From: Paraburkholderia sp. PGU19
Lineage (GTDB): Bacteria > Pseudomonadota > Gammaproteobacteria > Burkholderiales > Burkholderiaceae
DNA: 64,000 nucleotides
Assembly: GCF_013426915.1 (NCBI RefSeq)
Contig: NZ_AP023180.1
Location: 1,488,001-1,552,000, forward strand
Direction of reading: 5' to 3'
The notes under the pieces were generated by a model that was not told the DNA's origin, searched no databases, and saw only the letters and a program-made list of their open reading frames with translations. The stretch's first letter is position 1. The number at the start of each line of letters is the position of its first letter. Shown here piece by piece: positions 32,077 through 46,613 of this stretch. The translations under genes and the position numbers were made by a program.

Positions 32077-32628
32077 ATGTCTCAAACCCCCACTACCAGC
32101 ACCAAGGATCAGCTCGTAGCACGTTGTCTGCCGTTTCTCGAAGAAGTGAGAGACATGACCACAGGCGTCGAAGTCGAGCAATGGCTGAACACGAAATACG
32201 GCGTCGATAGCGAGCTGTACAAGGATCTCGCCCGCCTCATTACGCTCGGCGTAGAAGAAGGCTGGGCGGCCGACGTCGAGATTTCTGGACCGAAGTACCG
32301 GCGTGCGCGGCTCGTCGCGCCTTCTGCGGAAACGTTCTTTTTCAGCATCACGGCGGTGCTGATGGACAGCACCGACAATGCGCAGAACAACCCTGAAAAC
32401 GCGTTTCGCGGCGACTACCACTCGCATCCGTATGGCGAGTTCAATCTCGTCGTGCCGCTCAACGAAGGCGCCGCGCTCGCTGGCCCAAGCGGATGGTGCT
32501 ACGGCGGCTGGACCGCGCCCGCGCCAGGCAGCCATCATTTTCCCGAGGCAAAAGGCGGTGCGGTGATCGCGCTGTTCTTCCTGCCCTCGGGACGCATTGC
32601 ATACGAGATCACGCCGCCCGCGAAGTGA
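32077..32628 (+). CDS. DUF4863 protein, likely 4-hydroxylaminobenzoate lyase-like (PnbB-type)
   Basis: 183-residue soluble protein with a helical N-terminal part (residues about 8-65) and a cupin-like C-terminal part (DYHSHPYGEFNLVVPLNEGA, APGSHHFPEAKGG) with several His residues. Members of this family include the lyase that turns 4-hydroxylaminobenzoate into protocatechuate and ammonia. A nitroreductase gene lies 9 kb away (41835), which would supply such a substrate. GGAGG lies 7 nt before ATG 32077. The family call is fairly sure, the reaction less so. Confidence 0.72.
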   Translation: MSQTPTTSTKDQLVARCLPFLEEVRDMTTGVEVEQWLNTKYGVDSELYKDLARLITLGVEEGWAADVEISGPKYRRARLVAPSAETFFFSITAVLMDSTDNAQNNPENAFRGDYHSHPYGEFNLVVPLNEGAALAGPSGWCYGGWTAPAPGSHHFPEAKGGAVIALFFLPSGRIAYEITPPAK

Positions 32629-32698: not shown

Positions 32699-34060
32699 CT
32701 AGTGCGCGAGCGATTCGCCCTCCGCGACATCCTCCACGCCTGCGCTCGAACACGTCGCCTGCTTGATCAGCAGGGCCACGCACGCGACCCCGCCCGATAC
32801 CGCAACGACCGTGAAAATGCCCGGCAGACTGACCTGCTGCCGCGACAACTCCGCGACGAGAAACGAACCCGCGATTCCGCCGAAGCGCCCGACGCCAAGC
32901 ATCCACGCGACACCCGTGCCGCGTCCCGCCGTTGGATAGAATGCAGCCGCGAGAGCGGGCATCGACGCCTGCGCGGTGTTCACCAGCACACCGGCGATAA
33001 ACACCGCGCACATCAGCAGGCCGATATCACCGACTGCCTGGCCAATGGCATACACGCTGATCGCACCGAACGCGTAAGCGGCCGCCACGACGCGATTGGG
33101 ATTGAAGCGATCCATCAGCATGCCGCACAGCACCGTCCCCACGCCGCCCAGCGGAAACAGCGCGGACACGAGCGCGGCGCGTTGCGGGCTTAGTCCCGCA
33201 TCCTTGAGAAGGACGGGCATCCAGTTGACCAGTCCGTAGAAGATGACGAGACCCATGAAGTAGCACAGCCAGAGCATCACGGAGCCGAGAATGAATGAAC
33301 GCGACAACACGATACGAATGCCGCCGCTCCCCGGTGCATGCCTGACGGATTCCTGCATGACGAAAGCATGCGCAAAGCGCGCGTCCGCACTGATGCGAAC
33401 CATCACGTTGCGAATCTTCTCGACCGGCTGCTGTCGCGCGACCATGTAACGGATCGACTCCGGCAGCCTGAATGCGAGCACGATGGCGAGCAGCAACGGC
33501 ACTGCGCCGCCGAGCAGCAGAACGCTGCGCCAGCCCAACTGCGGAATCATCCACGCAGCGAGAAATCCGCCCAGGGCGGCGCCCAAAGGGAATCCGCAGA
33601 ACATCAGATTGACGATCGTGGCGCGCCGGCCGTCGGGACAGTATTCGCTCATCAGCGTGACGGCGTTCGGCATCGCGGCGCCGAGTCCGACGCCCGTGAC
33701 GAAACGCAGCGTCGTCAACGCGGTCAGATCCTGCGCGTAAGCCGAAGCGAAACACGCCACGCCGAACAGCAGCACGGACAAGGTCAGCACGAGGCGTCGC
33801 CCGCACCTGTCCGACAGAGGTCCCGAAAGCAAGGCGCCGCACGCGAGCCCAAAGAGCGCGGCACTCAGCACAGGCGCAAGCGCCGCCTTGCCGATATGCC
33901 ACTCCGACAGCAGCGAAGGCGCGATAAAGCCGATCGCGGCCGTATCGAAGCCATCCATCAGCACGATGACGAAGCACATCGCAAATACGAGCCACTGAAA
34001 GCGGGAGAAAGGGTGCTCGTTGATGAGCGCTTGTATATCGACAGTCCGGGTCTCTTCCAT
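32699..34060 (-). CDS. MFS aromatic-acid:H+ symporter (AAHS family)
   Basis: 453-residue, 12-helix importer of the PcaK/BenK/GalT group. Family signatures are FVIVLMDGFDTAAIGFIAP in helix 1 (the essential DGxD) and LSGPLSDRCGRR in loop 2-3. TGVGLGAAMPNAVTLMSEY is in helix 4. GAGGA precedes ATG 34060. It is on the same strand as, and last in line after, the Rieske oxygenase/ligase genes, so it probably brings in their aromatic acid substrate. Confidence 0.9.
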   Translation of the reverse strand: MEETRTVDIQALINEHPFSRFQWLVFAMCFVIVLMDGFDTAAIGFIAPSLLSEWHIGKAALAPVLSAALFGLACGALLSGPLSDRCGRRLVLTLSVLLFGVACFASAYAQDLTALTTLRFVTGVGLGAAMPNAVTLMSEYCPDGRRATIVNLMFCGFPLGAALGGFLAAWMIPQLGWRSVLLLGGAVPLLLAIVLAFRLPESIRYMVARQQPVEKIRNVMVRISADARFAHAFVMQESVRHAPGSGGIRIVLSRSFILGSVMLWLCYFMGLVIFYGLVNWMPVLLKDAGLSPQRAALVSALFPLGGVGTVLCGMLMDRFNPNRVVAAAYAFGAISVYAIGQAVGDIGLLMCAVFIAGVLVNTAQASMPALAAAFYPTAGRGTGVAWMLGVGRFGGIAGSFLVAELSRQQVSLPGIFTVVAVSGGVACVALLIKQATCSSAGVEDVAEGESLAH

Positions 34061-34352
34061 TGCATCCTCACTGATGGGATTGAATTGTCGGCATCGCCAC
34101 GTCAGCGCTTGCTGCGTGCCTCGCCGATCTATCGGGGGCCAAGATTAAGAGCGCCAGATATGGCCAACAACCCGGCGAAGCACGCACGCGGCGCGCACAT
34201 GCCCCTCGTGCGGCGTGGCAAGCATCGCGCGATGCATCCGGGTTGAATCGAGAAGACCTATGTTTTCAGGCCGTTTCGACGACGTTGACGAGATTGCGCA
34301 CCATGGCGCGCGCGCAGTGAATTGTTTGCATACCGATCTTGCACAGTCCGGA

Positions 34353-35336
34353 TCAACAGCTGCGAACCTGCCGTGCGACGTCGGCGAGCTGGTGCCGCAG
34401 CCATTGCAGCGCCGGGTCGGTGTCGTTGCGTTCGTGCCAGACGGCGCGCACGGCAGCGTTGTGACACTCGTAGGGTGTCGCGCACATTTTCAGTTCGCCG
34501 TAGCGCTCCAGTTCACGGCCAAGCGATGACGGCACGAGCGCGAGCATGTCGCTGTGACGAAGCAGCGCGGGAATGGCAAGCGAATGCGCGACCGACATAC
34601 GCATGCGCGGCACGTCGGTACCGTCGGCGAATGCGCGGTTGAGCGCGTCGCGATTGAACATCTCCGATTGCCGCGCGAGTCCGCGCTCGACGATGAAGCC
34701 GCTCACCGCGCCCTCTTCCTCGCCGCCCTGCGAAACCGCAACGAGCGGATAAGCGAGCAGATCGTCACGCGTAATGGACGGGTCGGCGCGCCCGGCGACG
34801 GGGTGGTCCCGATGAAGCAGCACCACATCCGTCTGCTCCCACAACTGCGCCGACCGCAAGCGCGTCGGCACGTCCGCGAATATGCCGATCGCCACATCGA
34901 TCCGGCCGACGTCGATCTGGCCGGCGAGATCGAGCCGCGTCGACGGACGGATCACCAGGTCCACGAGCGGCGCTTCCGCGCGCAGCCGTTGACTGAGCCG
35001 CCCAAGCACCAGCAACGTGATGTAGTCGTTCGCCGCGACGACGAACTTGCGTTGCGCGACGCGCGGATCGAACGCATCCACGCCCAGCGCCGCCCTGATC
35101 TGCGCCAGCGCGCCGCGCACCTGCGCCGCCATGCCGACAGCGCGCACCGTTGGCTCCATGCCCTTGCCCGTGCGCACGAAAAGGTCGTCGCCGAGCATCT
35201 GGCGCATGCGCCCAAGCGCATGACTGATCGCCGATTGACTGAGGTTCAGGCGCTTGCCCGCCAGGGCGAGATTGCGGTCTTCGAAGATCGCGTCGAATAC
35301 GCGCAGCAGGTTCAGGTCGATGCGATCCGCGGACAT
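34353..35336 (-). CDS. LysR-family transcriptional regulator
   Basis: 327 residues. N-terminal winged HTH (DLNLLRVFDAIFEDRNLALA, LNLSQSAISHALGRMRQML) of the NodD/NahR/LinR-like subgroup, then a periplasmic-binding-like effector domain. Start ATG 35336 lies 4 nt after the stop of the gamma-glutamyl hydrolase gene, so it is probably the last gene of that run rather than a separate unit. Presumed effector: the aromatic substrate of the pathway. Confidence 0.9.
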   Translation of the reverse strand: MSADRIDLNLLRVFDAIFEDRNLALAGKRLNLSQSAISHALGRMRQMLGDDLFVRTGKGMEPTVRAVGMAAQVRGALAQIRAALGVDAFDPRVAQRKFVVAANDYITLLVLGRLSQRLRAEAPLVDLVIRPSTRLDLAGQIDVGRIDVAIGIFADVPTRLRSAQLWEQTDVVLLHRDHPVAGRADPSITRDDLLAYPLVAVSQGGEEEGAVSGFIVERGLARQSEMFNRDALNRAFADGTDVPRMRMSVAHSLAIPALLRHSDMLALVPSSLGRELERYGELKMCATPYECHNAAVRAVWHERNDTDPALQWLRHQLADVARQVRSC

Positions 35337-35340
35337 GGTC

Positions 35341-36126
35341 CTAACCCTCATGATGATCGGTTGCGGGCTGTGCCGCATGACGATACCGGCGACAACTCGC
35401 ACCGAATGCTTCGAAGATCGAACGCGACAGCGCGTCGTGTTGCGTCATGACTTCCGGATGCCACTGCACGCCGAGCGCGAAGTCGTGTCCGTTCAGCCGA
35501 TACGCTTCGATCAGGCCGTCGGGAGCGCGAGCTTCAACGACAAGCGGCGGCGCAAGCGCGGCAACGCCCTGCCGATGCAGCGAATTCACGCGCACGCATT
35601 GCGCATCGGCGAGCGCCGACAGCATGCCAGCAGGCGTGAGTTCGACGTCGTGGCGGTATCGATAGCGGGTGGGCAGATCCTCTGCGAGGTCTTCGAGATG
35701 GTCTTCTGAATGACCGGACGCGTGGATATCCGTGTGAAGCGTGCCGCCAAAAGCAACATTCATTTCCTGGAAGCCACGGCAGATCGCGAGAATGGGCATG
35801 CCGCGCGCCGCCGCGCCGCGCATCAGTTTCAACGCGACGTGATCGCGATCGGGATCGGCGAGCGCGTCGCGATTTACTTCGCCGCCATATCTGTGCGCCT
35901 CCACGTTCGAGGCGCCACCTGGAAACAGCAACCCGCTCACGCCGTCGAGATATGCCTCCACCGATTCGATCTCGCGCGATGCCGGAATCAGCACGGGACT
36001 GACATTCGCGCCCGATATCAGCGCGCGGACATAACTGTGCTTCGCGGCATGTTGATCGTGTTCACCGATGAAGAAGCGGTCGCACACCACTCCGACGAGC
36101 GGACGGCCGTGTTGTTCAGCGCTCAT
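35341..36126 (-). CDS. Class I glutamine-amidotransferase-like gamma-glutamyl hydrolase (PuuD-like)
   Basis: 261 residues, peptidase C26 fold. Nucleophile Cys116 in ILAICRGFQEMN, oxyanion/strand motif LLFPGGASN, and catalytic His223 and Glu225 in GVQWHPE: all triad residues present. PuuD releases GABA from gamma-glutamyl-GABA, and a similar protein accompanies the glutamine-synthetase-like ligase in aniline dioxygenase clusters. Here it overlaps the reductase gene by 4 nt (ATGA). Inferred role: removing a gamma-glutamyl group put on by the ligase at 37737, or clearing excess conjugate. Confidence 0.88.
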   Translation of the reverse strand: MSAEQHGRPLVGVVCDRFFIGEHDQHAAKHSYVRALISGANVSPVLIPASREIESVEAYLDGVSGLLFPGGASNVEAHRYGGEVNRDALADPDRDHVALKLMRGAAARGMPILAICRGFQEMNVAFGGTLHTDIHASGHSEDHLEDLAEDLPTRYRYRHDVELTPAGMLSALADAQCVRVNSLHRQGVAALAPPLVVEARAPDGLIEAYRLNGHDFALGVQWHPEVMTQHDALSRSIFEAFGASCRRYRHAAQPATDHHEG

Positions 36127-37382
36127 TGGGGGACTCCCCGTGGCGCATGCACGTCGCGGCTCGCGAGCGTTTTCAGATCGAATGCGGGATCGCGCACCGC
36201 GTCCGGCGTAACGCGTGCACCGTTCGATAGCAGCTTGCGCGCGAACATGTGATCCTGCGGCCGGTTGATGCTATCGACGGCGATCAGCTTGTCGTCGCGA
36301 AAGTAGAACAGCGAGAGACGTTTGTCTTCGACGGAACCGCGCATCGCGTAGTCGGTAAAGCCTGCGTTCACGCCGGCCATCTGCAGCTTCAGGTCGTATT
36401 GGTCGGACCAGAACCAGGGCAGCGCGCGATACGGCTCCGGCCGCCCGACAGTCGTTGCCGCTGCCGTTTTTGCCATATCGTTGGCGTTCTGCACGGATTC
36501 GATGCGGCATGCGCGCGTGCCCGGTGGCGCCCAATGAGGGACGAACGAAGCGCAATCGCCGGCGGCGACGATCGACGGGTCGCTGGTGCGCGCGCAGGCG
36601 TCCACCATCACGCCGCCCGCCACGTTCAGTCCGCAGTCGGCGGCGAGTTCGGTATTCGGGACCACGCCAATGCCAACCACGACGAGTTCGCAATCGAGCC
36701 GCAGCCCATCATCGAGTTCGACCGATACGCTCCCATCCGCGTCGTGTAGCGCCACCACCTTGCGTCCGAATTCGAACGCGACGCCATGCTCCGTGTGAGC
36801 ACGCAGCATGAAGCCGGACAGCCACGGCGACGCGACGCGTGCCAGCAGACGCGACTCCGTCTCCACCACCGTCACTTCGAGTCCCTGCTGACGCAGCGAC
36901 GCCGCCGCTTCAAGACCGATATAGCCGCCGCCGATCACGACCGCGCGCCGCGCCGTGCGCGTCGTCTGCGCAAGACGCCTTGCGTCGCACAGATCGCGGA
37001 GATAGTGAACGGCATCGAGCGTGGCGCCAGGACAATCGAGCTTGCGCACCCGCGCCCCCGTCGTCAGCGCAAGGTGGTGATATGTGATGCGCGAGCCGTC
37101 GTGCAGCCCGATCTCGCGACGCTCGCGGTCGATGTGCGTGGCGCGCATCGACGGCATCCATTCGATCTTCTCTTCGTCGAAAAACGCCTGAGAACGCAGC
37201 GGTAAACGCTGCTCCGCAAAGCTGCCCGTCAAAAAGCCCTTCGACAGCGGCGGACGCTGGTAAGGCGCATCGGGCTCGTCGCCGAGCAGCACGATACGGC
37301 CGTCAAAGCCGAGTTCGCGCGCCGACGCCGCGAGCTGCACGCCCGCATACGACGCGCCGACAACCACAAGCGTGCTGTTCAT
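36123..37382 (-). CDS. Ferredoxin reductase, putidaredoxin-reductase type
   Basis: 419-residue FAD/NADH enzyme that reduces the 2Fe-2S ferredoxin encoded just upstream. FAD motif VVVGASYAGVQLA near residue 5, PYQRPPLSKGFL near 43, NAD motif AVVIGGGYIGLEAAASLR near 145, and C-terminal FAD contact SIVAAGDCASF near 270: the BphA4/CamA layout. ATG 37382 has AAGGG 7 nt upstream. It is the electron entry point of the Rieske system; only 4 nt separate it from the ferredoxin stop. Confidence 0.92.
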   Translation of the reverse strand: MNSTLVVVGASYAGVQLAASARELGFDGRIVLLGDEPDAPYQRPPLSKGFLTGSFAEQRLPLRSQAFFDEEKIEWMPSMRATHIDRERREIGLHDGSRITYHHLALTTGARVRKLDCPGATLDAVHYLRDLCDARRLAQTTRTARRAVVIGGGYIGLEAAASLRQQGLEVTVVETESRLLARVASPWLSGFMLRAHTEHGVAFEFGRKVVALHDADGSVSVELDDGLRLDCELVVVGIGVVPNTELAADCGLNVAGGVMVDACARTSDPSIVAAGDCASFVPHWAPPGTRACRIESVQNANDMAKTAAATTVGRPEPYRALPWFWSDQYDLKLQMAGVNAGFTDYAMRGSVEDKRLSLFYFRDDKLIAVDSINRPQDHMFARKLLSNGARVTPDAVRDPAFDLKTLASRDVHAPRGVPQ

Positions 37383-37386
37383 GATG

Positions 37387-37710
37387 TCACCCTTGCCTCG
37401 GCGGAATGCGGACGACAAGCCCGTCCATCGCAGCCATCATGACGAGCTGGCAGCTCAGCCGGCTTTCGGGACGCCGCTCGGCGGCGACGCCGTCGAGCAG
37501 TTCCAGTTCGGAGTCGTCGGGCAACGGCAGGTCCGCCGTCGATGAGGCGTCGATATAAACATGGCATGTCGCACACGACAGGCAGCCGCCGCATTCGGCA
37601 TCGATGCCGCGCACGTTGCCGTGAATCGCGGCCTCCATCACGCTGGTGCCAGCGGGTACGTCGATCTCGCGGCGATCACCGTCGCGCAGAATATAGGTGA
37701 CGATAGGCAT
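37387..37710 (-). CDS. Adrenodoxin-type 2Fe-2S ferredoxin
   Basis: 107 residues. Cluster ligands follow the adrenodoxin pattern C-x5-C-x2-C in ECGGCLSCATCHVYID, with the last Cys in SRLSCQLVM. An additional Cys sits inside the first loop (CGGC). It carries electrons from the reductase to the Rieske oxygenase. Ribosome site GAGGAG before ATG 37710. Confidence 0.93.
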   Translation of the reverse strand: MPIVTYILRDGDRREIDVPAGTSVMEAAIHGNVRGIDAECGGCLSCATCHVYIDASSTADLPLPDDSELELLDGVAAERRPESRLSCQLVMMAAMDGLVVRIPPRQG

Positions 37711-37736
37711 GACTTCTCTCCTCGATGGGAACGCCA

Positions 37737-39173
37737 TCAGAACGTTTCGAAATACTCGCGGTGTTCCCACTCGGTGACTTCCAGATTGAAGCGGTTGATT
37801 TCCGCTTCCTTCAGCTTGCAGAAGTAGTCGATGAAGGCGCTGCCGAATCCTTCGCGCAGCGATTCGTTCGCATGCAGCGCGGCGATCGCATCACTCAACG
37901 TGCGGGGCAATGCGTCGGCCTGCGTTTCGTAGGGCGTATCCGCAGAGGGAGGCAGTTCGCGTTTGCGTCTGAGTCCGTCCAGCCCAGAGAGCACCTGCGA
38001 GCCGAAGTACAGATACGGATTCGCGGCCGGTTCGCCGACGCGGTTTTCGATGCGCGTCGCGGGATCGTTCTGTCCGCCCAGCACGCGCAGCATCACACCG
38101 CGGTTGTCGCATCCCCAGTTCGCGCGATCGGGTGCATTCGAATACGGCCGATAACGGCGATATCCGTTGATGGTCGGCGTCGATAGTGCGGCTGCGCCCT
38201 GCGCGTGCGCGAGCAAGCCGGCGAGATACCGCTGCCCGACTGTCGAGAGCGGCGCGTCCGGATTCGTCGGCATGAACGCGTTGCTGCCGTCCGCGCGATG
38301 CACGAGCGACTGATGCAGATGCCATCCACTCGACACGACATTCGGAATGCGCGGGCGGCACATGAATGTCGCGTGATAACCGTTGCGCTGACAGATCTGC
38401 TTGACCGCGCTGCGAAACAGAATCATGTCGTCGGCACTCTTGATGCCTCGGGTCGGCGCGAACGTGAACTCGAACTGGCTCGGACCGTATTCGACTTCGA
38501 GCGAGCGCACAGGCAACGCGAGCCCGTCGATGCCGCGCCTGAGCATTTCCATCACGTTATCGACGGCGTCGTAGCGCAGTTCCGTCAGATACTGATAACC
38601 GTGCGACAGCAGCTCGACATCGGGCGGAATGCCTGGCTGGCCCGAATGCTCGGGCTTCATGTTCGTATCAGTGACCTTGAAGACATGAAACTCGACTTCG
38701 AGACCGGACACGAATTCGAACCCATGATTGCCGAGCTGTTCGAGCGCATGGCGAAACAGATGGCGCGTGCCGAACGGCACGGGCCTGCCGTTCGGAAAGT
38801 ACACGTCGCACAGCACCCAGCCCGTATGCGGCGCCCACGGCAGAACGCGGAAGGTTTCGGGATCGGCGACCATCAAGGTATCACAGGCGCCCTGCATTTC
38901 AGGCATGTCGAAGCCGCCGCCTGCCGTGAACACGGGGAACACCGTGCGGTGCGACGTATCTTTGGCGAGCAGCGTGCTCGTCAGCGTGACGCCGGACTTG
39001 AATGCGCTGATCGCCTCGTCGACGACGAGCGTCTTGCCGCGCAGCAGTCCGTGCTGATCGGGAAACGAAAAACGGACCACTTGCACGTCGCTCTTTTTGA
39101 GCCGTTCGAGCAGCTCGGCGTACGCAGCGTGCTGGGCGTCCGTCCACAAACCATGGTTTTCAACAAAAGACAT
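37737..39173 (-). CDS. Glutamine-synthetase-like gamma-glutamyl-amine ligase
   Basis: 478 residues, GS fold. Beta-grasp N-domain with RFSFPDQHGLLRGKTL; first metal-site acids in SGLEVEFHVF (Glu159, Glu161); ATP/metal region SSGWHLHQSL; and NRVGEPAANPYLYFGSQVL, typical of GS-like ligases (PuuA, GlnT, IpuC, the aniline AtdA1/TdnQ type). The adenylylation Tyr region of true GlnA is not evident. It probably joins glutamate to an amine at ATP cost. It sits between the Rieske oxygenase and its ferredoxin, which ties it to oxygenase substrate handling. Confidence 0.88.
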   Translation of the reverse strand: MSFVENHGLWTDAQHAAYAELLERLKKSDVQVVRFSFPDQHGLLRGKTLVVDEAISAFKSGVTLTSTLLAKDTSHRTVFPVFTAGGGFDMPEMQGACDTLMVADPETFRVLPWAPHTGWVLCDVYFPNGRPVPFGTRHLFRHALEQLGNHGFEFVSGLEVEFHVFKVTDTNMKPEHSGQPGIPPDVELLSHGYQYLTELRYDAVDNVMEMLRRGIDGLALPVRSLEVEYGPSQFEFTFAPTRGIKSADDMILFRSAVKQICQRNGYHATFMCRPRIPNVVSSGWHLHQSLVHRADGSNAFMPTNPDAPLSTVGQRYLAGLLAHAQGAAALSTPTINGYRRYRPYSNAPDRANWGCDNRGVMLRVLGGQNDPATRIENRVGEPAANPYLYFGSQVLSGLDGLRRKRELPPSADTPYETQADALPRTLSDAIAALHANESLREGFGSAFIDYFCKLKEAEINRFNLEVTEWEHREYFETF

Positions 39174-39231
39174 CGTGCTTCACGCGGCAGTTGAACGGCC
39201 GCGCGCTCCATTGTGATTGCGGAAACCGTCC

Positions 39232-40548
39232 TCAAGCCTTCGGCGCGGGCCACGGCGCGGCATCGCGACGTTTGACGTCGGATGCCTTCCAGTAGTCGTC
39301 CCAGCCGTCGGCGGGCCCGATGCCGTCGATCGATGCCGGTCCCGTCAGATGCGCCGCCTGCTGTTCGTCGATCATCATCAGCGTCTTCTCGCCGGCGCGC
39401 GTCTTCTCGATCGCATCGACGAGCAGACGACGGTAGGCGATGATGCCCTTGTCGGTCGTGCCCAGATGCTCGCGCGTGCGGTCCTGGATCGCGCCCTGCG
39501 ATTCGACGGCCCACTGGTCGTGGACATTGATGTCGAAGCCCATGCCCGTGTAGGTCTGGGTCTGTTGCTCGTCGATATCGAAGCCGTAGTGGTTGCGTTT
39601 GTTCTTGCGCGATGTGTAGTCGGGCAGCTCATACAGTTCGAGCCGTTGCGCGCGCATCTGCGCCTTGTCGGTCGGCGCGCCGAAGCTCGTGAAGATCGAG
39701 TACCAGTAACAGTTCTCGTCGTCGACGGGCACGTGCCATTGCGTGATCGTCATCTCCGCGCTCATCGGAATCACGAACGCCTGCGGAAACACGACGTTGG
39801 TCACGCGCACGTGCGTCTGGGTGTCGTCGAGTGGACGCTTCGCGATCAGCCGAAGCCCATAGTCGGCCGGACTGACGAGAATCTCGGGCGACTCGTATTC
39901 GCGCAGCACCTTCGTGATCGGCATATCCGAATCCGCTGACGCGCCGCGAAACTGCTTGCCGTAGCTGTCGCTCACGTCCTCGTCTTCGAAGAAGCGATGC
40001 AGGAACGATGCGTGGGCGGGATCGATGCCGACTTCGAGCGCCTGCAGCCAGTTGCATTCGAACAGCCCTTTGAAGGCGAACGTGTATTCGCCCGGCGCGG
40101 CGAAGCAGTCGAAGTTCGGAAACGCTGGCGGCTCGCCGCCGCCGATGTAGGCGAACAGGATGCCGCTGCGCTCGACCACGGGATACGCGCTCTGGCGGAC
40201 CTTGTTGCAGAGCGTGCTGCCGATGGGTTCGCCGGGCGTCGACAGACAGCTTCCGTTGACATCGAAGAGCCAGCCGTGAAACGCGCAGCGCAGGCCGCCT
40301 GCCTCCAGACGGCCCGCCGCCAGATCCGCGCCGCGATGCGGGCAGTCGCGATCGAGCATGCCGTAGCGGCCCTGCTCGTCCTTGAATACGACGAAGTCCT
40401 GACCCATCAGCCGCACCGCGCGGACGGGGCGCTGCGCGGGCAACTCCTCCACGAGCGCCACGGGCTGCCAGTAGTTGCGCAGTAGCTGGCCGGCGGGTGT
40501 GCCTTTGCCGACGCGCGTGATTGTGTCGTTTTGCTGGGAACTCATCAT
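39232..40548 (-). CDS. Rieske non-heme iron oxygenase, phthalate-dioxygenase-like (alpha only)
   Basis: 438 residues. Rieske cluster ligands Cys69, His71, Cys88 and His91 (CPHRGADL...CAFHGWLFD). Mononuclear iron His179 and His184, with Asp176 in the bridging GIDPAHASFLH segment. The C-terminal AIQDRTREHLGTTDKGIIAY is characteristic of the phthalate 4,5-dioxygenase / phenoxybenzoate dioxygenase group, which has no beta subunit. No small-subunit gene is present, consistent with this. GGAG precedes the start; a second ATG follows directly. First gene of the run: oxygenase, ligase, ferredoxin, reductase, hydrolase, LysR. Substrate not known. Confidence 0.92.
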   Translation of the reverse strand: MMSSQQNDTITRVGKGTPAGQLLRNYWQPVALVEELPAQRPVRAVRLMGQDFVVFKDEQGRYGMLDRDCPHRGADLAAGRLEAGGLRCAFHGWLFDVNGSCLSTPGEPIGSTLCNKVRQSAYPVVERSGILFAYIGGGEPPAFPNFDCFAAPGEYTFAFKGLFECNWLQALEVGIDPAHASFLHRFFEDEDVSDSYGKQFRGASADSDMPITKVLREYESPEILVSPADYGLRLIAKRPLDDTQTHVRVTNVVFPQAFVIPMSAEMTITQWHVPVDDENCYWYSIFTSFGAPTDKAQMRAQRLELYELPDYTSRKNKRNHYGFDIDEQQTQTYTGMGFDINVHDQWAVESQGAIQDRTREHLGTTDKGIIAYRRLLVDAIEKTRAGEKTLMMIDEQQAAHLTGPASIDGIGPADGWDDYWKASDVKRRDAAPWPAPKA

Positions 40549-40933
40549 GGCGTGTCTCCGGTTGACTTGAATGCATGAGGCGGGTTGCTGTATGCAATGA
40601 CGCCTTCGATGAGCACGAAGAATAGAACTAAGAATTCATAAACTCAATCTCTGCATACACAACCCATCAGACGCGATCTCAAATTTTTCGTCAAAATCAT
40701 CGGGAACAGCGACCCATATCGTTGATATATATATGTATTTTGTCGATCACTAGGACTTTCCCTGGAAAACACTCTCGAAGCCAGAAAATTACGATTCAGC
40801 GGCTATTGCATACAATGCAGAACATCCATTCATCTGCTTCCGCATTTTTCGGCCCCGCGTCACCTCGCATGCCCTACAATCAGACGCACGAAGTCCGCCG
40901 CGCCTAACCCGGCAAAGAGCACCGGAGAATGAA
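40549..40933. other. Divergent promoter region, Rieske operon / GntR
   Basis: 385 bases, AT-rich between 40620 and 40830, with no gene. It carries three TGCATACA-type boxes (see next entry) and a run of alternating AT at 40724-40737 that may be part of a core promoter. Confidence 0.5.
40589..40816. promoter_or_regulatory. Three probable GntR operator boxes
   Basis: TGTATGCA at 40589-40596, TGCATACA at 40652-40659 and TGCATACA at 40807-40814. The last lies inside the near-palindrome ATTGCATACAAT (40805-40816), the size and symmetry seen for FadR-subfamily GntR operators. The adjacent GntR gene is the obvious binder. Confidence 0.6.
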
Positions 40934-41665
40934 ATGGAATCCCAGCAAGAACGTGTATTGGTGTATCTGCGCGACCTGATCCTGAAGGGCGAATTCGCCC
41001 CCGGCGAGCGCCTCGGCGAAGTCGCGCTCGCTGAGCGTCTGCAGGCATCGCGCACGCCCGTCCGGCTCGCGCTCACCACGCTCGAACAGGAAGGCCTGGT
41101 CGAACCGTCTCCGGCGGGCGGCTATGTGATGCGGCGCATCACCGCCGCGGAAATCGCCGATGCCATCGCGGTGCGCGGGCATCTCGAAGGCATGGCTGCG
41201 CGCCTCGTCGCCGAACATGGCGTGCCGCGCCAGTTGTCGAACGCGCTGAACGAATGTCTGCGCGGCGGCGACCGTCTGCTCGCGAAGTCCGAACTGGACC
41301 TCGACGACTACGCCGCGTACACGGACATGAATAGCCGGTTTCACAAGCTGATCGTCGAAGGCTCGGGCAACGCGGCGCTGATCCGCGCAATCGAGATGAA
41401 CAACCGTCTGCCGTTTGCCGCCGCAAGCGCGATGTTGCCGATGCAATCCGCCATCGACGAAGGCCGTCAATGGCTTTTCATGGCGCATCAGCAGCATCAC
41501 AGTCTCGTGCAGGCGATGGAACGCGGCGAAGGCACGCGCGCGCAGTCGCTGGCGACGGAGCACGTGCAGATCGCGCAACGAAATCTGACCTATGCGCTCG
41601 AACGTCCGGAGGTTTATCTGAAGCTCGCGCCTGCTTTGCAGCTTGTCGCGGAGGCGGTTTTATAA
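40934..41665 (+). CDS. GntR-family (FCD domain) transcriptional regulator
   Basis: 243 residues. Winged HTH at about 5-70 (VYLRDLILKGEFAPGERLGE, ERLQASRTPVRLAL) and a C-terminal all-helical FCD effector domain (ITAAEIADAIAVRGHLEGMA, DYAAYTDMNSRFHKLIVEGS) whose Asp/His residues usually bind metal and carboxylate ligand. GGAG precedes ATG 40934. Divergent from the Rieske operon, so the likely regulator of it and of itself. Confidence 0.93.
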   Translation: MESQQERVLVYLRDLILKGEFAPGERLGEVALAERLQASRTPVRLALTTLEQEGLVEPSPAGGYVMRRITAAEIADAIAVRGHLEGMAARLVAEHGVPRQLSNALNECLRGGDRLLAKSELDLDDYAAYTDMNSRFHKLIVEGSGNAALIRAIEMNNRLPFAAASAMLPMQSAIDEGRQWLFMAHQQHHSLVQAMERGEGTRAQSLATEHVQIAQRNLTYALERPEVYLKLAPALQLVAEAVL

Positions 41666-41834: not shown

Positions 41835-42518
41835 ATGAATTCGGATGCCTATATTGTCGACTCCATCATCCGATCGCGGAAAGCGGTTCGGGTCTTTCGT
41901 CCAGACGCAGTTTCGAAAGAGGACGTCATTGCCATTCTCGATGTCGCACGTACTGCGCCCAGCAATTCGAACACGCAACCGTGGCACGTTCACGTGCTGG
42001 GCGGCCAGATCAAACAGCAATTCAGCGCCGCGCTAGCGCGTGCTCACACGGATGAAACGCATCCGCCGCTGCAACACATGCCGGAACGTTTACCCGACTC
42101 ATTCCGCTCGCGGCAGGAAGACTTCGGCGTGCGCTATTACGGCGCATTGGGCATCGACAAATCGGACGTCGATGCGCGTTCCCAGGCAACCGGCAGAAAC
42201 TTCAATTTTTTCGGCGCCCCCGTCGGCATGATTTTCACGATCGATGCCAGCCTGAAGAAGCACAGCTGGCTCGACTATGGGCTGTTCCTTCAAACCGTCA
42301 TGATCGCGGCTCGCTCTCGCGGACTCCATACGTGCCCGCAGGTCTCGTTCGCGCGTTACCAGTCAGTCATCGCCAGTCAACTTGCGCTTGAACCGGGCCA
42401 CGAAGTGGTCTGCGGGATGTCTCTCGGCTACGCGGATGAGGATTCCATCGTGAACCGACTCCAGATGCCGCGTGAGTCGGTCGACCATTTCGCACAGTTC
42501 GTCGGACTCGACGAATAG
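41835..42518 (+). CDS. Nitroreductase family protein (4-nitrobenzoate reductase-like)
   Basis: 227-residue FMN enzyme. N-terminal FMN contact IIRSRKAVRVF, TAPSNSNTQPWHVHV, and C-terminal GMSLGYADEDSIVNRL. The length and SNSNTQPW motif fit the group containing PnbA, which reduces 4-nitrobenzoate to the hydroxylamino compound; other nitroarenes are equally possible. Followed by an FMN reductase-like gene and the gallate pathway, consistent with an aromatic feed. Confidence 0.85.
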   Translation: MNSDAYIVDSIIRSRKAVRVFRPDAVSKEDVIAILDVARTAPSNSNTQPWHVHVLGGQIKQQFSAALARAHTDETHPPLQHMPERLPDSFRSRQEDFGVRYYGALGIDKSDVDARSQATGRNFNFFGAPVGMIFTIDASLKKHSWLDYGLFLQTVMIAARSRGLHTCPQVSFARYQSVIASQLALEPGHEVVCGMSLGYADEDSIVNRLQMPRESVDHFAQFVGLDE

Positions 42519-43243: not shown

Positions 43244-43557
43244 GAACGAAGGGGGTGCGTAGCGCACAGGCCCAGATCCGCTGATCGAGTCCGATGCGCA
43301 ACTGGCGCGCCCTACTCGTTGCTTTTAAGCAGGTTGGGTATCTAAAATATTTATCGGTAAGAAATTTTCGATGGTCGGCAGAGCGCTTTGCCGACCGTGC
43401 TTCGCGCCAGTTGCCCCGCCTGAAGACATCATAGCTGGCCGTACAACCGTGGTTGACACACCTGAGACCGCTGTTATCTCATGCGTTTATTCAATGCGGG
43501 ATTTGCTTCGATGACAGACCGTCTTGCGAAGCGACGCATGTCACGGGACTTACGGCT
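43244..43557. other. Upstream region of the ring-cleavage operon
   Basis: About 310 bases with no gene; a short AT-rich patch at 43335-43370 (CTAAAATATTTATCGGT) probably belongs to the promoter of the dioxygenase operon. Confidence 0.4.
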
Positions 43558-44858
43558 ATGGCAAAAATCATCGGCGGGCTTGCCGCATCACATACTCCGA
43601 CGATCGGCTTCGCGTTCGACAAGAACAAGCGTGACGACCCGGTCTGGGCACCAATCTTCGAGAATTTCGCGCCGCTGGCAGACTGGCTCGCCGAGAAGCG
43701 CCCCGACGTGCTGGTCACGATCTATAACGACCACGTTACCTCGTTCTTCTTCGATCACTATTCGGCGTTCGCGCTCGGCGTCGGCGAGCAATGGCAGGTC
43801 GCGGACGAAGGCGGCGGCGCACGCGATTTGCCCGCCATCAAGGGGCATCCGGAATTCGCGGCGCACATCGGCAAGTCGCTGATGACGGACGAGTTCGACA
43901 TGTCCTTCTTTCAGAACAAGGCGCTCGATCACGGCTGCTTCTCGCCCCTGTCGATGCTGTGCCCGCACAAGCCCGAGTGGCCCGTCAAACTCGTGCCCCT
44001 GCAGATGGGCGTTCTGCAACTTCCCGTGCCCAGCGCGCGGCGCTTCTACAAGCTCGGTCAGGCGCTGCGCCGCGCGATCGAAAGCTATCCGGAAGACATG
44101 AAGGTCGCGATTCTCGCGACGGGCGGCCTCTCCCACCAGGTGCACGGCGAACGCGCCGGCTTCAATAACACCGAATGGGATCAGCGTTTCCTGGACCTGT
44201 TCGAGCGCGACCCGAGCAGCTCGCAAACATGACGATCGCCGAATATGCGGAACTCGGCGGCTACGAAGGCGCGGAAGTCGTCATGTGGCTCACGATGCGC
44301 GGCGCGCTGTCGTCGAACGTGGTCTGCAAGCACCGCAGCTACTACCTGCCGTCGATGGCGGGCATCGCGACGGCGATTTACGAAGGCGAAGACAGCGAGC
44401 CCAGTCCCGCCATCGTCGAGCGGCATCGTCAGAAGATGGCGGTTGAGCTGACCAATGTCGAGAAGCTCGACGGCACGTATCCGTTCTCGATCGAGATGGC
44501 CGTGCGCGCGTATCGGATCAACGATTACCTGCATCGCATGGTCGAACCGGAGCATCGCGAAGCGTTCAAGCGCGACGAAGAGGCGAGCTTTGAGGCGGCA
44601 GGCCTGACCGAACAGGAACGCGACCTGATCCGCCGGCGCGACTGGCGCGGACTGCTCCACTATGGCGTCATCTTCTTCATGCTGGAGAAGCTCGGCGCCG
44701 TCACCGGCGTGTCGAATCTGCACATCTACGCCGCCATGCGCGGCGAAACACTCGAAGCATTCCAGAAGACCCGCAACGCGCCCGGTGCGCTTTATTCGGT
44801 AGCCGGCAAGGGCAGTCAAAACCTTTCGTGGGACAAGTCCGGGTCGCCCAAGCAGTAG
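43558..44858 (+). pseudogene. Gallate/protocatechuate-type extradiol dioxygenase (fused LigB-LigA), frameshifted
   Basis: Ring-cleaving Fe(II) enzyme in which a LigB-like catalytic part is followed by a LigA-like part, as in GalA gallate dioxygenase. First frame from ATG 43558: iron ligands His12 (AASHTPTIG) and His59 (IYNDHV), and active-site His193 (GGLSHQVHG). It ends early at 44232 (FERDPSSSQT). The other frame continues EQLANMTIAEYAELGGYEGA through GVSNLHIYAAMRGETLEAFQ to 44858. One base added to the CCC at about 44209-44211 restores a protein of about 433 residues. No dehydrogenase or PDC hydrolase gene is nearby, which favours gallate over protocatechuate as substrate. Real mutation or sequencing error cannot be decided here. 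Confidence 0.8.
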
Positions 44859-44901
44859 ACCGCACGGACGCCCAGCCATTGCACTGACAGAGACAGCAAC
44901 G

Positions 44902-45927
44902 ATGATCATCGACATTCACGGTCACTACACCACTGCACCGAAAGCGCTGGAAGCCTGGCGCAACCGCCAGATCGCGGGCATCAAGAATCCGGCTGAGATG
45001 CCGCACGCGTCCGAACTGCACATTAGCGACGATGAATTGCGCGATTCCATTGAGAGCAACCAGCTTCGGCTCATGCGTGAGCGCGGCCTCGATCTGACCA
45101 TTTTCAGTCCGCGTGCGAGCTTCATGGCGCATCACATTGGGGACTTCGAAGTCTCGAGCACGTGGGCGGCCATCTGCAATGAACTGTGCTTTCGCGTGAG
45201 CGAGCTGTTCCCGGACAACTTCATTCCGGCGGCGATGCTGCCGCAAAGTCCCGGCGTCGATGTCAAGACCTGCATCCCTGAACTGGTGAAGTGCGTCGAG
45301 CAGTATGGCAATGTCGCCATCAACCTGAACCCGGACCCGTCGGGTGGTCACTGGACCAGCCCGTCACTGTCGGACCGGTACTGGTATCCCATCTACGAGA
45401 AGATGGTCGAATACGACATCCCGGCGATGATTCACGTCAGCACGAGTTGCAATGCGTGCTTTCACACTACGGGTGCGCATTATCTGAACGCGGATACGAC
45501 CGCGTTCATGCAATGCCTCACCTCAGACCTGTTCCAGGATTTCCCGACGCTGCGCTTTGTCATCCCGCACGGCGGCGGCGCCGTGCCTTATCACTGGGGG
45601 CGCTTCCGTGGGCTTGCGCAGGAGCTGAAGAAGCCGCTGCTCAAAGACCATCTGCTGAACAACGTGTTCTTCGATACCTGCGTCTATCACCAGCCGGGCA
45701 TCGATCTGCTGACGCGCGTGATCCCCGTCGAGAACATCCTCTTCGCGAGCGAGATGATCGGCGCCGTGCGAGGCTTCGACCCTGAGACGGGCTTCAATTA
45801 CGACGACACGAAGCGCTATGTCGAGGCAGCCGCCATCGACGCGGAGGACCGTTACAAGATCTACGAGGGCAACGCGCGGCGTGTCTATCCGCGTCTGGAC
45901 GCAGCCCTCAAGGCAAAGGGAGTTTGA
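44902..45927 (+). CDS. ligJ: 4-oxalomesaconate hydratase (LigJ-type amidohydrolase)
   Basis: 341-residue metal-dependent hydratase, ring-fission pathway step 2: 4-oxalomesaconate to 4-carboxy-4-hydroxy-2-oxoadipate. Amidohydrolase metal motif DIHGHYTT at the start, [20 protein letters not shown] in the middle, and [20 protein letters not shown] near 220. Same strand, 43 nt after the dioxygenase and 2 nt before the aldolase start. The gallate-pathway GalB is a different fold, so this is a LigJ-like solution. Confidence 0.9.
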
Positions 45928-45929
45928 CT

Positions 45930-46613
45930 ATGTATGAAATGGGCGTTGTCTACCGCAACATCAAACGCGCGGACAAGGAAGTCGCCAGCAAGCTTGGCGC
46001 CTTGGGTTCCGCCACCGTTCATGAGGCAATGGGCCGTACTGGCCTGCTCAAGCCGTACATGCGGCCTATCTACCCTCACGCCCAGGCGAGCGGTACAGCC
46101 GTCACGGTCCTGCTGCATCCCGGCGACAACTGGATGATGCACGTCGCCGCCGAACAGATTCAACCCGGCGACATCGTCGTTGCGGCCATCACGGCGGACT
46201 GCACCGATGGCTACTTTGGCGACCTGCTGGCGACCAGCTTCAAGGCGCGCGGCGCCACAGGTCTCATCATCGATGCCGGTGTGCGCGACGTAAGAGTTCT
46301 CGAGGAGATGGGTTTCCCCGTCTGGAGCAAGGCAATTTCTTCGAAGGGCACCATCAAGGCCACGGTGGGCTCAGTCAATATCCCGGTGGTTTGCGCTGGC
46401 GCACTCGTTTCACCTGGCGATGTGATTGTCGCGGATTTCGACGGCGTGGTCGCCGTGCCTGCTTCTGCCGCCGCCGCGGTACTCGACAAGGCGAGCGCGC
46501 GGGAAGCGCTGGAAGCGGAAAAACGCGCGAAGCTCGCGTCCGGTGTTCTTGGACTCGACATGTACAACATGCGAGAGCCGCTGAAGCAGGCGGGCCTGCG
46601 TTATATCGACTGA
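45930..46613 (+). CDS. ligK: 4-carboxy-4-hydroxy-2-oxoadipate (CHA) aldolase, LigK/GalC-type
   Basis: 227 residues, RraA/HMG-aldolase fold. Splits CHA to pyruvate and oxaloacetate. The metal/substrate motif appears as [12 protein letters not shown] and, about 20 residues on, [12 protein letters not shown] (Gly-x20-Arg-Asp). ATG 45930 has GGGAG 7 nt upstream; a TTG at 45924 overlaps the LigJ stop. Tightly coupled to the hydratase gene. Confidence 0.93.

What the first reader, a model, noticed from the sequence alone, without database searches (positions are those of the whole stretch)
34353..40548. Gamma-glutamylation-linked Rieske oxygenase system resembling aniline dioxygenase logic but built on a phthalate-type oxygenase
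Seen: six tightly packed genes (oxygenase, GS-like ligase, ferredoxin, reductase, class I GATase-like hydrolase with intact Cys/His/Glu, LysR). Known: aniline systems (AtdA/TdnQT) pair a GS-like ligase and a GATase-like protein with a two-subunit Rieske oxygenase. Here the oxygenase is of the alpha-only phthalate/phenoxybenzoate group and uses an adrenodoxin-type ferredoxin. Inference: an aromatic amine (perhaps an aminobenzoate or aminophenol-type acid) is glutamylated, oxygenated, then deglutamylated. I know of no described pathway with this exact set.
Basis: partly seen in the sequence, partly recalled or inferred. Interest (0 to 1): 0.78.

Follow-up and report, generated by a model that had tools for sequence, protein, structure and literature searches.

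The report
Likely p-aminobenzoate-degrading oxygenase gene cluster
A soil-type bacterium carries a gene cluster that probably attaches glutamate to a food molecule such as p-aminobenzoate so that an iron enzyme can oxidise it; its core gene pair occurs in many bacteria and resembles a described dye-chemical (sulfanilate) degradation system, so it extends a known kind rather than starting a new one.

Summary
Confirmed: a phthalate-type Rieske oxygenase, arylamine-type glutamine-synthetase-like ligase, ferredoxin, reductase, PuuD-like hydrolase and LysR gene lie together. Oxygenase and ligase are inseparable: adjacent in 40 of 40 close loci and 79 of the 80 best named loci (8 loci are shared between the sets; the miss is a contig end). 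The hydrolase is optional: an ortholog is lacking in 10 of 45 genomes.

The set is not undescribed: the sad operon of sulfanilate degraders is the precedent. I could not align the original Sad proteins; the sulfanilate degrader SA1 carries the same pair.

New: the cluster sits between pnbB- and pnbA-like genes of 4-nitrobenzoate degradation, and linkage to pnbB recurs in Cupriavidus, Xenophilus and Methylobacterium. The ligase position of NpaA1 tunnel residue Phe75 is Lys in 111 of 111 such ligases, 0 of 8 comparators; the oxygenase keeps a carboxylate-binding Arg (117 of 117, but 9 of 9 paralogs too).

Best reading: p-aminobenzoate is gamma-glutamylated, then 3,4-dioxygenated to protocatechuate. 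Substrate and chemistry are inferred. If right, this is the unknown natural job of the sad-type pair.

The parts
39232..40548 (-). Rieske oxygenase alpha subunit, phthalate/LigXa type (SadA-like)
   Evidence: PF00355 + PF19301; best PDB matches 7fhr (named phthalate 4,5-dioxygenase alpha), 7fjl and 9ina, E 5e-61 to 1e-58
39805..39807 (-). codon of Arg248, counterpart of a carboxylate-binding Arg of phthalate (R244) and isophthalate (R234) dioxygenase
   Evidence: alignments, residue roles in PMC12445078; Arg in 117 of 117 distinct oxygenases, also in 9 of 9 distant paralogs
37737..39173 (-). glutamine-synthetase-like ligase of the arylamine type (SadB-like), predicted gamma-glutamyl-p-aminobenzoate synthetase
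   Evidence: PF00120; best PDB match 8wwu at 441 bits against 177 for the next; 43.0% identical to the JS3066 plasmid ligase
38961..38963 (-). codon of Lys71, at the position of tunnel-bottleneck Phe75 of NpaA1
   Evidence: Lys in 111 of 111 distinct ligases of this type, 0 of 8 comparators
38574..38576 (-). codon of Arg200, at the position of NpaA1 His206
   Evidence: Arg in 109 of 111, 1 of 8 comparators
37387..37710 (-). [2Fe-2S] ferredoxin (ORF open from 37770; start at 37710 inferred from a 107-aa relative)
   Evidence: PF00111, homolog of 324 bases in Caballeronia insecticola
36123..37382 (-). FAD-dependent ferredoxin reductase (ORF open from TTG 37418; start at ATG 37382 inferred)
   Evidence: PF07992, PF14759; best NCBIfam model AndAa reductase, below cut-off
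35341..36126 (-). Peptidase C26 / PuuD-like gamma-glutamyl hydrolase, optional member
   Evidence: PF07722 215 bits; PDB 7d4r, 6vtv; in 31 of 40 loci and in 35 of 45 genomes at >=56% identity
34353..35402 (-). LysR regulator, in the place of pnbR
   Evidence: PF00126 + PF03466; position against PMC9302171 locus tags
32699..34060 (-). MFS aromatic-acid transporter, PcaK-like
   Evidence: TIGR00895 410 bits (cut-off 418.55) and NF053517 PcaK 487 bits (cut-off 770); full-length in 29 of 40 loci
32077..32628 (+). PnbB-like gene (4-hydroxylaminobenzoate lyase family), locus partner
   Evidence: PF16155 194 bits; at the same locus in 18 of 21 oxygenase-bearing genomes of the genus; full-length in 30 of 40 loci
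40934..41665 (+). GntR/FCD regulator, divergent from the oxygenase, likely its regulator
   Evidence: PF00392 + PF07729; in 39 of 40 loci and 37 of 80
40549..40933 (.). divergent promoter region with three TGCATAC sites (40590, 40652, 40807), candidate GntR operators
   Evidence: at least two copies in 32 of 32 aligned intergenic regions, the window's included; 0 of 2000 mononucleotide shuffles reach three
41835..42518 (+). nitroreductase, in the place of pnbA
   Evidence: PF00881 102 bits; a relative at >=40% identity, aligned over 70% or more, in 21 of 40 loci

Best explanation
This is a sad-type, gamma-glutamylation-dependent arylamine oxygenase system whose most likely substrate is 4-aminobenzoate (PABA). 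Step 1: the ligase joins the gamma-carboxyl of glutamate to the aromatic amino group with ATP (shown for related ligases elsewhere; substrate inferred). Step 2: NADH -> reductase -> ferredoxin -> Rieske oxygenase puts O2 across C3 and C4 (C4 bears the amide); the carboxylate is held by Arg248, and the unstable product loses its nitrogen, probably as glutamine, giving protocatechuate (all inferred, by analogy with the 1-naphthylamine and 4-aminobenzenesulfonate systems). Step 3: protocatechuate enters the ortho pathway (a pcaH-type gene lies elsewhere on the replicon). The PuuD-like hydrolase is read as a safety valve that cleaves surplus conjugate back to amine and glutamate. The pnbB- and pnbA-like neighbours would feed 4-nitrobenzoate to the same product, so the locus would handle both para-nitrogen benzoates.
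For: Oxygenase and ligase are inseparable: same 21 of 144 genomes of the genus (the ligase search also found a 50% ligase in G035, without the oxygenase), same strand and at most about 110 bases apart in 40 of 40 loci, adjacent in 79 of 80 named loci. The ligase is of the arylamine type (8wwu 441 bits, next 177), across a 100/100 branch from seven ligases near alpha-beta oxygenases (loci). Lys71 replaces Phe75 in 111 of 111 and Arg200 replaces His206 in 109 of 111. The pair lies on plasmid pSA3 of the sulfanilate degrader SA1. PnbB: 18 of 21 oxygenase-bearing against 16 of 123 other genomes of the genus (Fisher p 5e-11, not corrected for kinship); linkage recurs in Cupriavidus, Xenophilus and Methylobacterium nodulans. 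Order and number of genes fit the pnbB-pnbR-pnbA locus tags of P. terrae KU-15, which grows on 4-nitrobenzoate. PcaK-like transporter; pcaH gene at 353 bits, cut-off 296, on the same contig. In Palleronia the ligase is followed, one small gene on, by a gene annotated 3-carboxymuconate cycloisomerase, of the protocatechuate ortho pathway.
Against: No reaction was shown. A full-length PnbB is lacking from 10 of 40 close loci (for five of these, L088, L094 and L100-L102, one search places a long-type copy elsewhere in the genome or beyond the stretch). Outside the 8 loci shared with the close set, PnbB is in 1 of 72 named loci and the hydrolase in 0 of 72, so the substrate argument rests on few lineages. 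No pcaH/G homolog was found at E <= 1e-12 in the fetched loci. Lys71 and Arg248 would suit a sulfonate as well, and SA1 has both. Arg248 is also kept in 9 of 9 distant paralogs, so it argues for an acid only weakly. Bradyrhizobium loci look to me like benzoate box-pathway neighbourhoods, which does not point to protocatechuate.
Confidence: 0.6

Rival explanations
1. The substrate is another acidic para-arylamine, above all 4-aminobenzenesulfonate (sulfanilate); PABA is not turned over or only by the way.
For: The closest described system, sad, acts on 4-aminobenzenesulfonate; SA1 has the same pair with the same Lys and Arg.
Against: The pair is in many genera, more than a dye chemical would explain; Gan et al. 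make that argument for Hydrogenophaga and expect a natural look-alike substrate. The PcaK-like transporter and pnb neighbours fit a carboxylate. 4-Sulfocatechol genes were not looked for in this genome.
Confidence: 0.15
2. N-oxidation route: the oxygenase hydroxylates the amide nitrogen of gamma-glutamyl-PABA, the PuuD-like hydrolase frees 4-hydroxylaminobenzoate, and PnbB turns it into protocatechuate and ammonia. This would give every neighbour a productive role.
For: Full-length PnbB in 30 and hydrolase in 31 of 40 loci; PnbB is named 4-hydroxylaminobenzoate lyase in Pfam.
Against: Neither is constant: G023 and G052 (L049, L052) have the hydrolase but no PnbB ortholog at E <= 1e-30, though each has a shorter PF16155 paralog elsewhere; L050 and L053-L056 have PnbB but no hydrolase at the locus, and their genomes hold at best a paralog of 50% or less. 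Related systems oxidise ring carbons.
Confidence: 0.12
3. The ligase serves a different amine (polyamine, ammonia, alkylamine) and sits next to the oxygenase by accident.
For: GS-like ligases include polyamine, isopropylamine and methylamine ligases (PMC11335346).
Against: Adjacency in 79 of 80 and 40 of 40 loci; arylamine-type score gap and tree; NpaA1 Glu232 and Glu234 kept in 121 of 121 rows.
Confidence: 0.03

Closest known systems
sad operon, 4-aminobenzenesulfonate 3,4-dioxygenase of Hydrogenophaga intermedia PBC (PMC5632844)
   Same: Oxygenase SadA, glutamine-synthetase-type SadB, ferredoxin and a further component SadD (that a reductase is among them is recalled); deamination of a para-amino acid arene to a catechol. 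The same pair as in the window is on pSA3 of the sulfanilate degrader N. resinovorum SA1 (oxygenase 68.6%, ligase 59.9% identical).
   Different: PBC proteins were not available for alignment. Here a PuuD-like hydrolase, PcaK-like transporter and pnb-like genes are added; the substrate is probably a carboxylate. Whether PBC has a hydrolase was not checked.
Aniline/chloroaniline/1-naphthylamine dioxygenases (AtdA, TdnQT, DcaQ, NpaA1-A5)
   Same: GS-like arylamine ligase, Rieske oxygenase and a GAT-family protein; gamma-glutamyl arylamide as the oxygenase's direct substrate.
   Different: Alpha-beta oxygenase (7 of 7 comparator loci that have one); one ferredoxin-NADP reductase gene in two of the plasmids, though the Rhodococcus locus has a separate ferredoxin; GAT protein 25.7% identical to NpaA2; ligase across a 100/100 branch, Phe in 6 of 8 at position 75.
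Phthalate and isophthalate dioxygenases (PDO, IPDO of Comamonas testosteroni KF1)
   Same: Closest solved oxygenases; carboxylate Arg kept; in IPDO the carbons facing the iron are C3 and C4, C3 bearing a carboxylate, a comparable attack on a substituted carbon.
   Different: No ligase known to me in those systems (recalled); IPDO His257, which binds the second carboxylate, is Gln270 here in 117 of 117.
pnb genes, 4-nitrobenzoate to protocatechuate (PnbA, PnbB, PnbR)
   Same: Flanking genes in an order and number that fit the pnbB-pnbR-pnbA locus tags of P. terrae KU-15.
   Different: The described nitrobenzoate route uses a nitroreductase and PnbB; here an oxygenase-ligase operon lies between.

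Membership tests
sad-type (4-aminobenzenesulfonate dioxygenase) system | Rieske oxygenase with a GS-like ligase, ferredoxin and reductase | tested here: met
   sad composition from PMC5632844, its reductase and one-subunit oxygenase recalled
sad-type (4-aminobenzenesulfonate dioxygenase) system | sequence kinship with SadA/SadB of Hydrogenophaga PBC | not testable with these tools
sad-type (4-aminobenzenesulfonate dioxygenase) system | turns 4-aminobenzenesulfonate into 4-sulfocatechol | not testable with these tools
   needs enzymes
Aniline dioxygenase (AtdA/TdnQT) family | two-subunit (alpha-beta) oxygenase | tested here: not met
   no beta-subunit gene in the cluster; aniline-type plasmid loci have one
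Aniline dioxygenase (AtdA/TdnQT) family | AtdA2-type GAT protein | tested here: not met
   hydrolase is C26/PuuD-like, 25.7% identical to NpaA2 over 140 residues
GoaS arylamine ligases | motif-15 loop present, Glu232/Glu234 pair, arylamine-type sequence | tested here: met
   the aromatic gate residue Phe75 is replaced by Lys
Rieske non-haem iron oxygenases | CxH...CxxH and 2-His-1-carboxylate | tested here: met
   Cys69, His71, Cys88, His91, His179, His184, Asp356 in the window protein
pnb 4-nitrobenzoate genes | PnbB, PnbA and PnbR | tested here: inconclusive
   PF16155 for PnbB; nitroreductase and LysR only by family and position

The most novel reading that the evidence does not exclude
The oxygenase-ligase pair now known from sulfanilate degraders is in nature a p-aminobenzoate 3,4-dioxygenase: a widespread module of Alpha- and Betaproteobacteria for consuming the folate precursor PABA, in which a Phe-to-Lys change in the ligase's amine tunnel marks the switch from neutral anilines to acidic arylamines, and which was recruited into the 4-nitrobenzoate locus so that nitro- and aminobenzoate converge on protocatechuate.
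Probability: 0.5. Interest if true: 0.62.

Novelty: new member of a known kind. Interest (0 to 1): 0.48.

Why it matters
Gan et al. (PMC5632844) argued that the sad operon is too conserved in Hydrogenophaga for a dye chemical and likely has a natural substrate resembling 4-aminobenzenesulfonate. The gene neighbourhood here names a candidate, p-aminobenzoate, and ligase residue Lys71 makes the change of specificity a one-residue test. If right, many soil and plant-associated bacteria could consume PABA by glutamylation, and hundreds of candidate genes (587 stretches, not each checked), some now named 'phthalate 4,5-dioxygenase' or 'glutamine synthetase family', would get a function.

Tried and rejected
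Considered and rejected: (a) phthalate or phenoxybenzoate dioxygenase, because of the constant ligase partner; (b) membership of the aniline dioxygenase family (no beta subunit, different GAT protein); (c) the adjacent gallate/protocatechuate 4,5-cleavage genes (43453-46613) as part of the system: in 3 of 40 loci; (d) pcaHG next to the pair: none at E <= 1e-12 in the loci searched; (e) an obligatory hydrolase or PnbB step. A first ligase tree with the genome's own distant glutamine synthetases had long branches and split the ligases of this type (three changes of label); it was rebuilt without those five rows, the Streptomyces row and one further row of this type (L166), so the 100/100 branch holds for the 34 rows kept. 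Phthalate dioxygenase Arg207 aligns with Phe200 by way of isophthalate dioxygenase but with Lys213 directly, so nothing is built on it. The first count of PnbB (31 of 40) held a 26-residue fragment in L095; one search gives 30. Paper searches for a published PABA/gamma-glutamyl route listed none that I recognised in the held open-access library; I opened nine papers, most of them for passages only, and subscription papers are mostly not held, so this is no proof of absence.

Led nowhere: look-ups of two subscription papers; one sulfamethoxazole paper without the terms sought; protein searches for Hydrogenophaga SadA.
Full report
OBSERVATION. The genome is 11.2 Mb in five contigs; the window lies on contig C2. 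The genome has seven matches to the glutamine-synthetase catalytic domain; one of them (locus L006) is the cluster's ligase.

WHAT THE LIGASE IS. Against solved structures it scores 441 bits to 8wwu and 177 to the next. I take 8wwu for NpaA1, the 1-naphthylamine ligase of PMC11335346; that is my identification (the PDB title says only glutamine synthetase), in line with 43.0% identity to the ligase on the JS3066 plasmid. In NpaA1 the amine tunnel is lined by a loop of the neighbouring subunit, with Phe75, Phe86 and Trp235 at the bottleneck (PMC11335346, sections 12 and 13 read). In the window ligase Phe75 is Lys71 and His206 is Arg200. I compared 121 ligases that accompany the oxygenase (40 close loci, 74 of the 79 ligases in the named loci, the window and six plasmid rows; 111 distinct): Lys in 111 of 111, Arg in 109 of 111. 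Of eight comparators, six have Phe, one Val, one His at the first position, and one has Arg at the second. Seven of the eight sit near an annotated beta subunit; the eighth, from Streptomyces, shows no annotated oxygenase within 5 kb. In a 34-row tree the two kinds lie on opposite sides of a branch with support 100/100; an earlier tree with distant outgroups did not keep the group together.

WHAT THE OXYGENASE IS. Nearest solved relatives are 7fhr (named phthalate 4,5-dioxygenase alpha), 7fjl and 9ina (both named only 'Rieske domain protein'). I take 7fjl for the phthalate and 9ina for the isophthalate dioxygenase of Comamonas testosteroni KF1, from memory and because the residue numbers of PMC12445078 (passages) fit: R244 directly in 7fjl; R234, F249, H257 and V178 in 9ina with an offset of 23. 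By these alignments Arg248 corresponds to R244 and R234, which bind a carboxylate. It is Arg in 117 of 117 distinct oxygenases, but also in 9 of 9 distant paralogs. Gln270 (117 of 117; paralogs Leu 6, His 2, Asn 1) stands where IPDO has His257. The four Rieske ligands are intact in the window; in the set each is kept in 114 of 117, the others being gaps or, at Cys69, Ala twice. The iron ligand Asp356 is Asn in 4 of 117, SA1 among them.

CO-OCCURRENCE. In 144 genomes of the genus the oxygenase (>=72%) is in 21 and the ligase (>=60%) in the same 21; one more genome, G035, has a 50% ligase only. In the family, 28 of 398 sampled genomes have the oxygenase at E <= 1e-150. In 40 fetched loci (20 from the genus, 20 from 19 further family genomes; five more family genomes with the oxygenase were not fetched) full-length relatives were: ligase 40 (same strand, gap at most 112 bases), ferredoxin 39, reductase 39, GntR 39, LysR 32, hydrolase 31, PnbB 30, MFS 29, porin 28, nitroreductase 21 (identity thresholds 40-55% by gene; three loci, L088, L094, L097, are cut by contig ends). 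L057 has only oxygenase and ligase. Genome-wide, a hydrolase of 56% or more is in 35 of 45 oxygenase-bearing genomes; five have only a paralog of 50% or less and five none at E <= 1e-60. In two genomes (G256, G363) it lies about 16 kb from the oxygenase, outside the fetched stretch. The ligase is adjacent in 79 of 80; L152 ends about 300 bases after the oxygenase. Ferredoxin was seen in 38, GntR in 37, reductase in 28, hydrolase in 8 and PnbB in 7 of 80; all 8 hydrolases and 6 of the 7 PnbB are in the shared loci, so among the other 72 the hydrolase is in 0 and PnbB in 1 (L132). With two further GAT queries and eight plasmid loci added, some GAT-like gene was found in 14 of 88.

SUBSTRATE. Three lines point to 4-aminobenzoate. 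First, a PnbB-family gene (PF16155, 194 bits) is in 18 of the 21 oxygenase-bearing genomes of the genus, at the same locus in all 18, and in 16 of the other 123 (Fisher p 5e-11, relatedness not corrected). It is linked to the pair again in Cupriavidus (L096-L098, of which L096 is Cupriavidus necator by its contig; C. pinatubonensis plasmid, about 10 kb off, annotated DUF4863), in Xenophilus (L132, 65%) and on a Methylobacterium nodulans plasmid next to a nitroreductase (59%). Second, PMC9302171 (passages) reports growth of Paraburkholderia terrae KU-15 on 4-nitrobenzoate and gives pnbB, pnbR and pnbA as locus tags 35480, 35500 and 35570; the window order PnbB, MFS, LysR, six genes (hydrolase, reductase, ferredoxin, ligase, oxygenase, GntR), nitroreductase fits that spacing. 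I did not fetch KU-15, so the match is by count only. Third, the transporter is PcaK-like, under the models' cut-offs, and a pcaH gene (353 bits, cut-off 296) lies on the same contig, about 0.9 Mb away. Against: of the 72 named loci outside the shared set one has PnbB, and no pcaHG was found near the pair, although the Palleronia locus has an annotated 3-carboxymuconate cycloisomerase close to the ligase.

PRECEDENT. PMC5632844 (part 2 of four of the text, and passages; [quoted passage not shown] I recall, without having been able to read it, that the 2012 cloning paper found SadB essential in E. coli and a reductase among the components. Plasmid pSA3 of N. resinovorum SA1, listed as a sulfanilic acid degrader (PMC6167471, passages), carries an oxygenase 68.6% and a ligase 59.9% identical to the window's, with ferredoxin, reductase, a glutaminase and a maleylacetate reductase near by. 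That this SA1 pair is the sulfanilate enzyme is likely but not shown by my calls.

MECHANISM. In the naphthylamine system the ligase, oxygenase subunits and reductase suffice, the conjugate is the oxygenase's direct substrate, and the GAT-like protein is not needed (PMC11335346, Results parts 1 and 2 and Discussion read); a review says the aniline GAT prevents build-up of the toxic conjugate (PMC4539516, passages). I transfer that: ligation, 3,4-dioxygenation, loss of the nitrogen (as glutamine, inferred), protocatechuate. The hydrolase is related to PuuD and is best read as recycling surplus conjugate. An N-hydroxylation route through PnbB would use all neighbours; loci with the hydrolase but without a PnbB ortholog (L049, L052) and the reverse (L050, L053-L056) speak against it as the general mechanism, though the first two genomes keep a shorter PF16155 paralog elsewhere.

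REGULATION. The GntR gene is more constant than the LysR gene. The 385-base divergent region holds three TGCATAC sites; at least two are found in 32 of 32 aligned regions (window and 31 relatives in which the GntR gene is divergent). Over the whole window the looser pattern TTGCATACAA with up to two mismatches is not enriched (33 against 29.4 expected), so the claim rests on local clustering and conservation.

VERDICT. Real, well conserved and functionally readable: a member of the sad kind with a probable new substrate, not a new kind of system.

Noticed in passing
window 43453-44858, + strand: The gallate-dioxygenase gene is split over two frames (positions 1-220 and 217-425 of NF009904 on separate ORFs), while relatives L038, L039 and L041 have one open frame of 470-474 codons; pseudogene or assembly error. 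An amidohydrolase and a LigK-type aldolase follow.
   Followed up: partly
L187:11955-12296, L188:11364-11702, L189:18024-18377: A small 5-carboxymethyl-2-hydroxymuconate-isomerase-like protein lies beside the ligase in these alphaproteobacterial loci; similar proteins, some weak and not adjacent, are in 16 of 88 loci. Possible tautomerase partner of unknown role.
   Followed up: no
L187:17590-18501 (N. resinovorum SA1 pSA3): A glutaminase gene lies next to the ferredoxin and reductase genes, as would suit release of glutamine by the oxygenase step; seen in 1 of 88 loci.
   Followed up: partly
oxygenases of SA1 (L187), L125, L126, L141: The mononuclear-iron carboxylate ligand Asp356 is Asn in 4 of 117 distinct oxygenases.
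   Followed up: partly
L056 (G129:C14): The ligase frame is interrupted by a TAA near its end in one small-genome relative that keeps most of the cluster.
   Followed up: no
Bradyrhizobium loci such as L162, L169, L173: The pair lies near genes that look like benzoate box-pathway genes and branched-chain-type ABC transporters (names given by me from sequence starts, not by a family search).
   Followed up: no
G000:C4:563078-563620 and G000:C1:1330578-1331009: Two more PnbB-family genes in the window's genome: one 73% identical to the window's, one of the shorter type.
   Followed up: no
window 34326-34335: A TTGCATAC site like those in the GntR-oxygenase promoter lies between the MFS and LysR genes, hinting at joint control of the transporter.
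   Followed up: no
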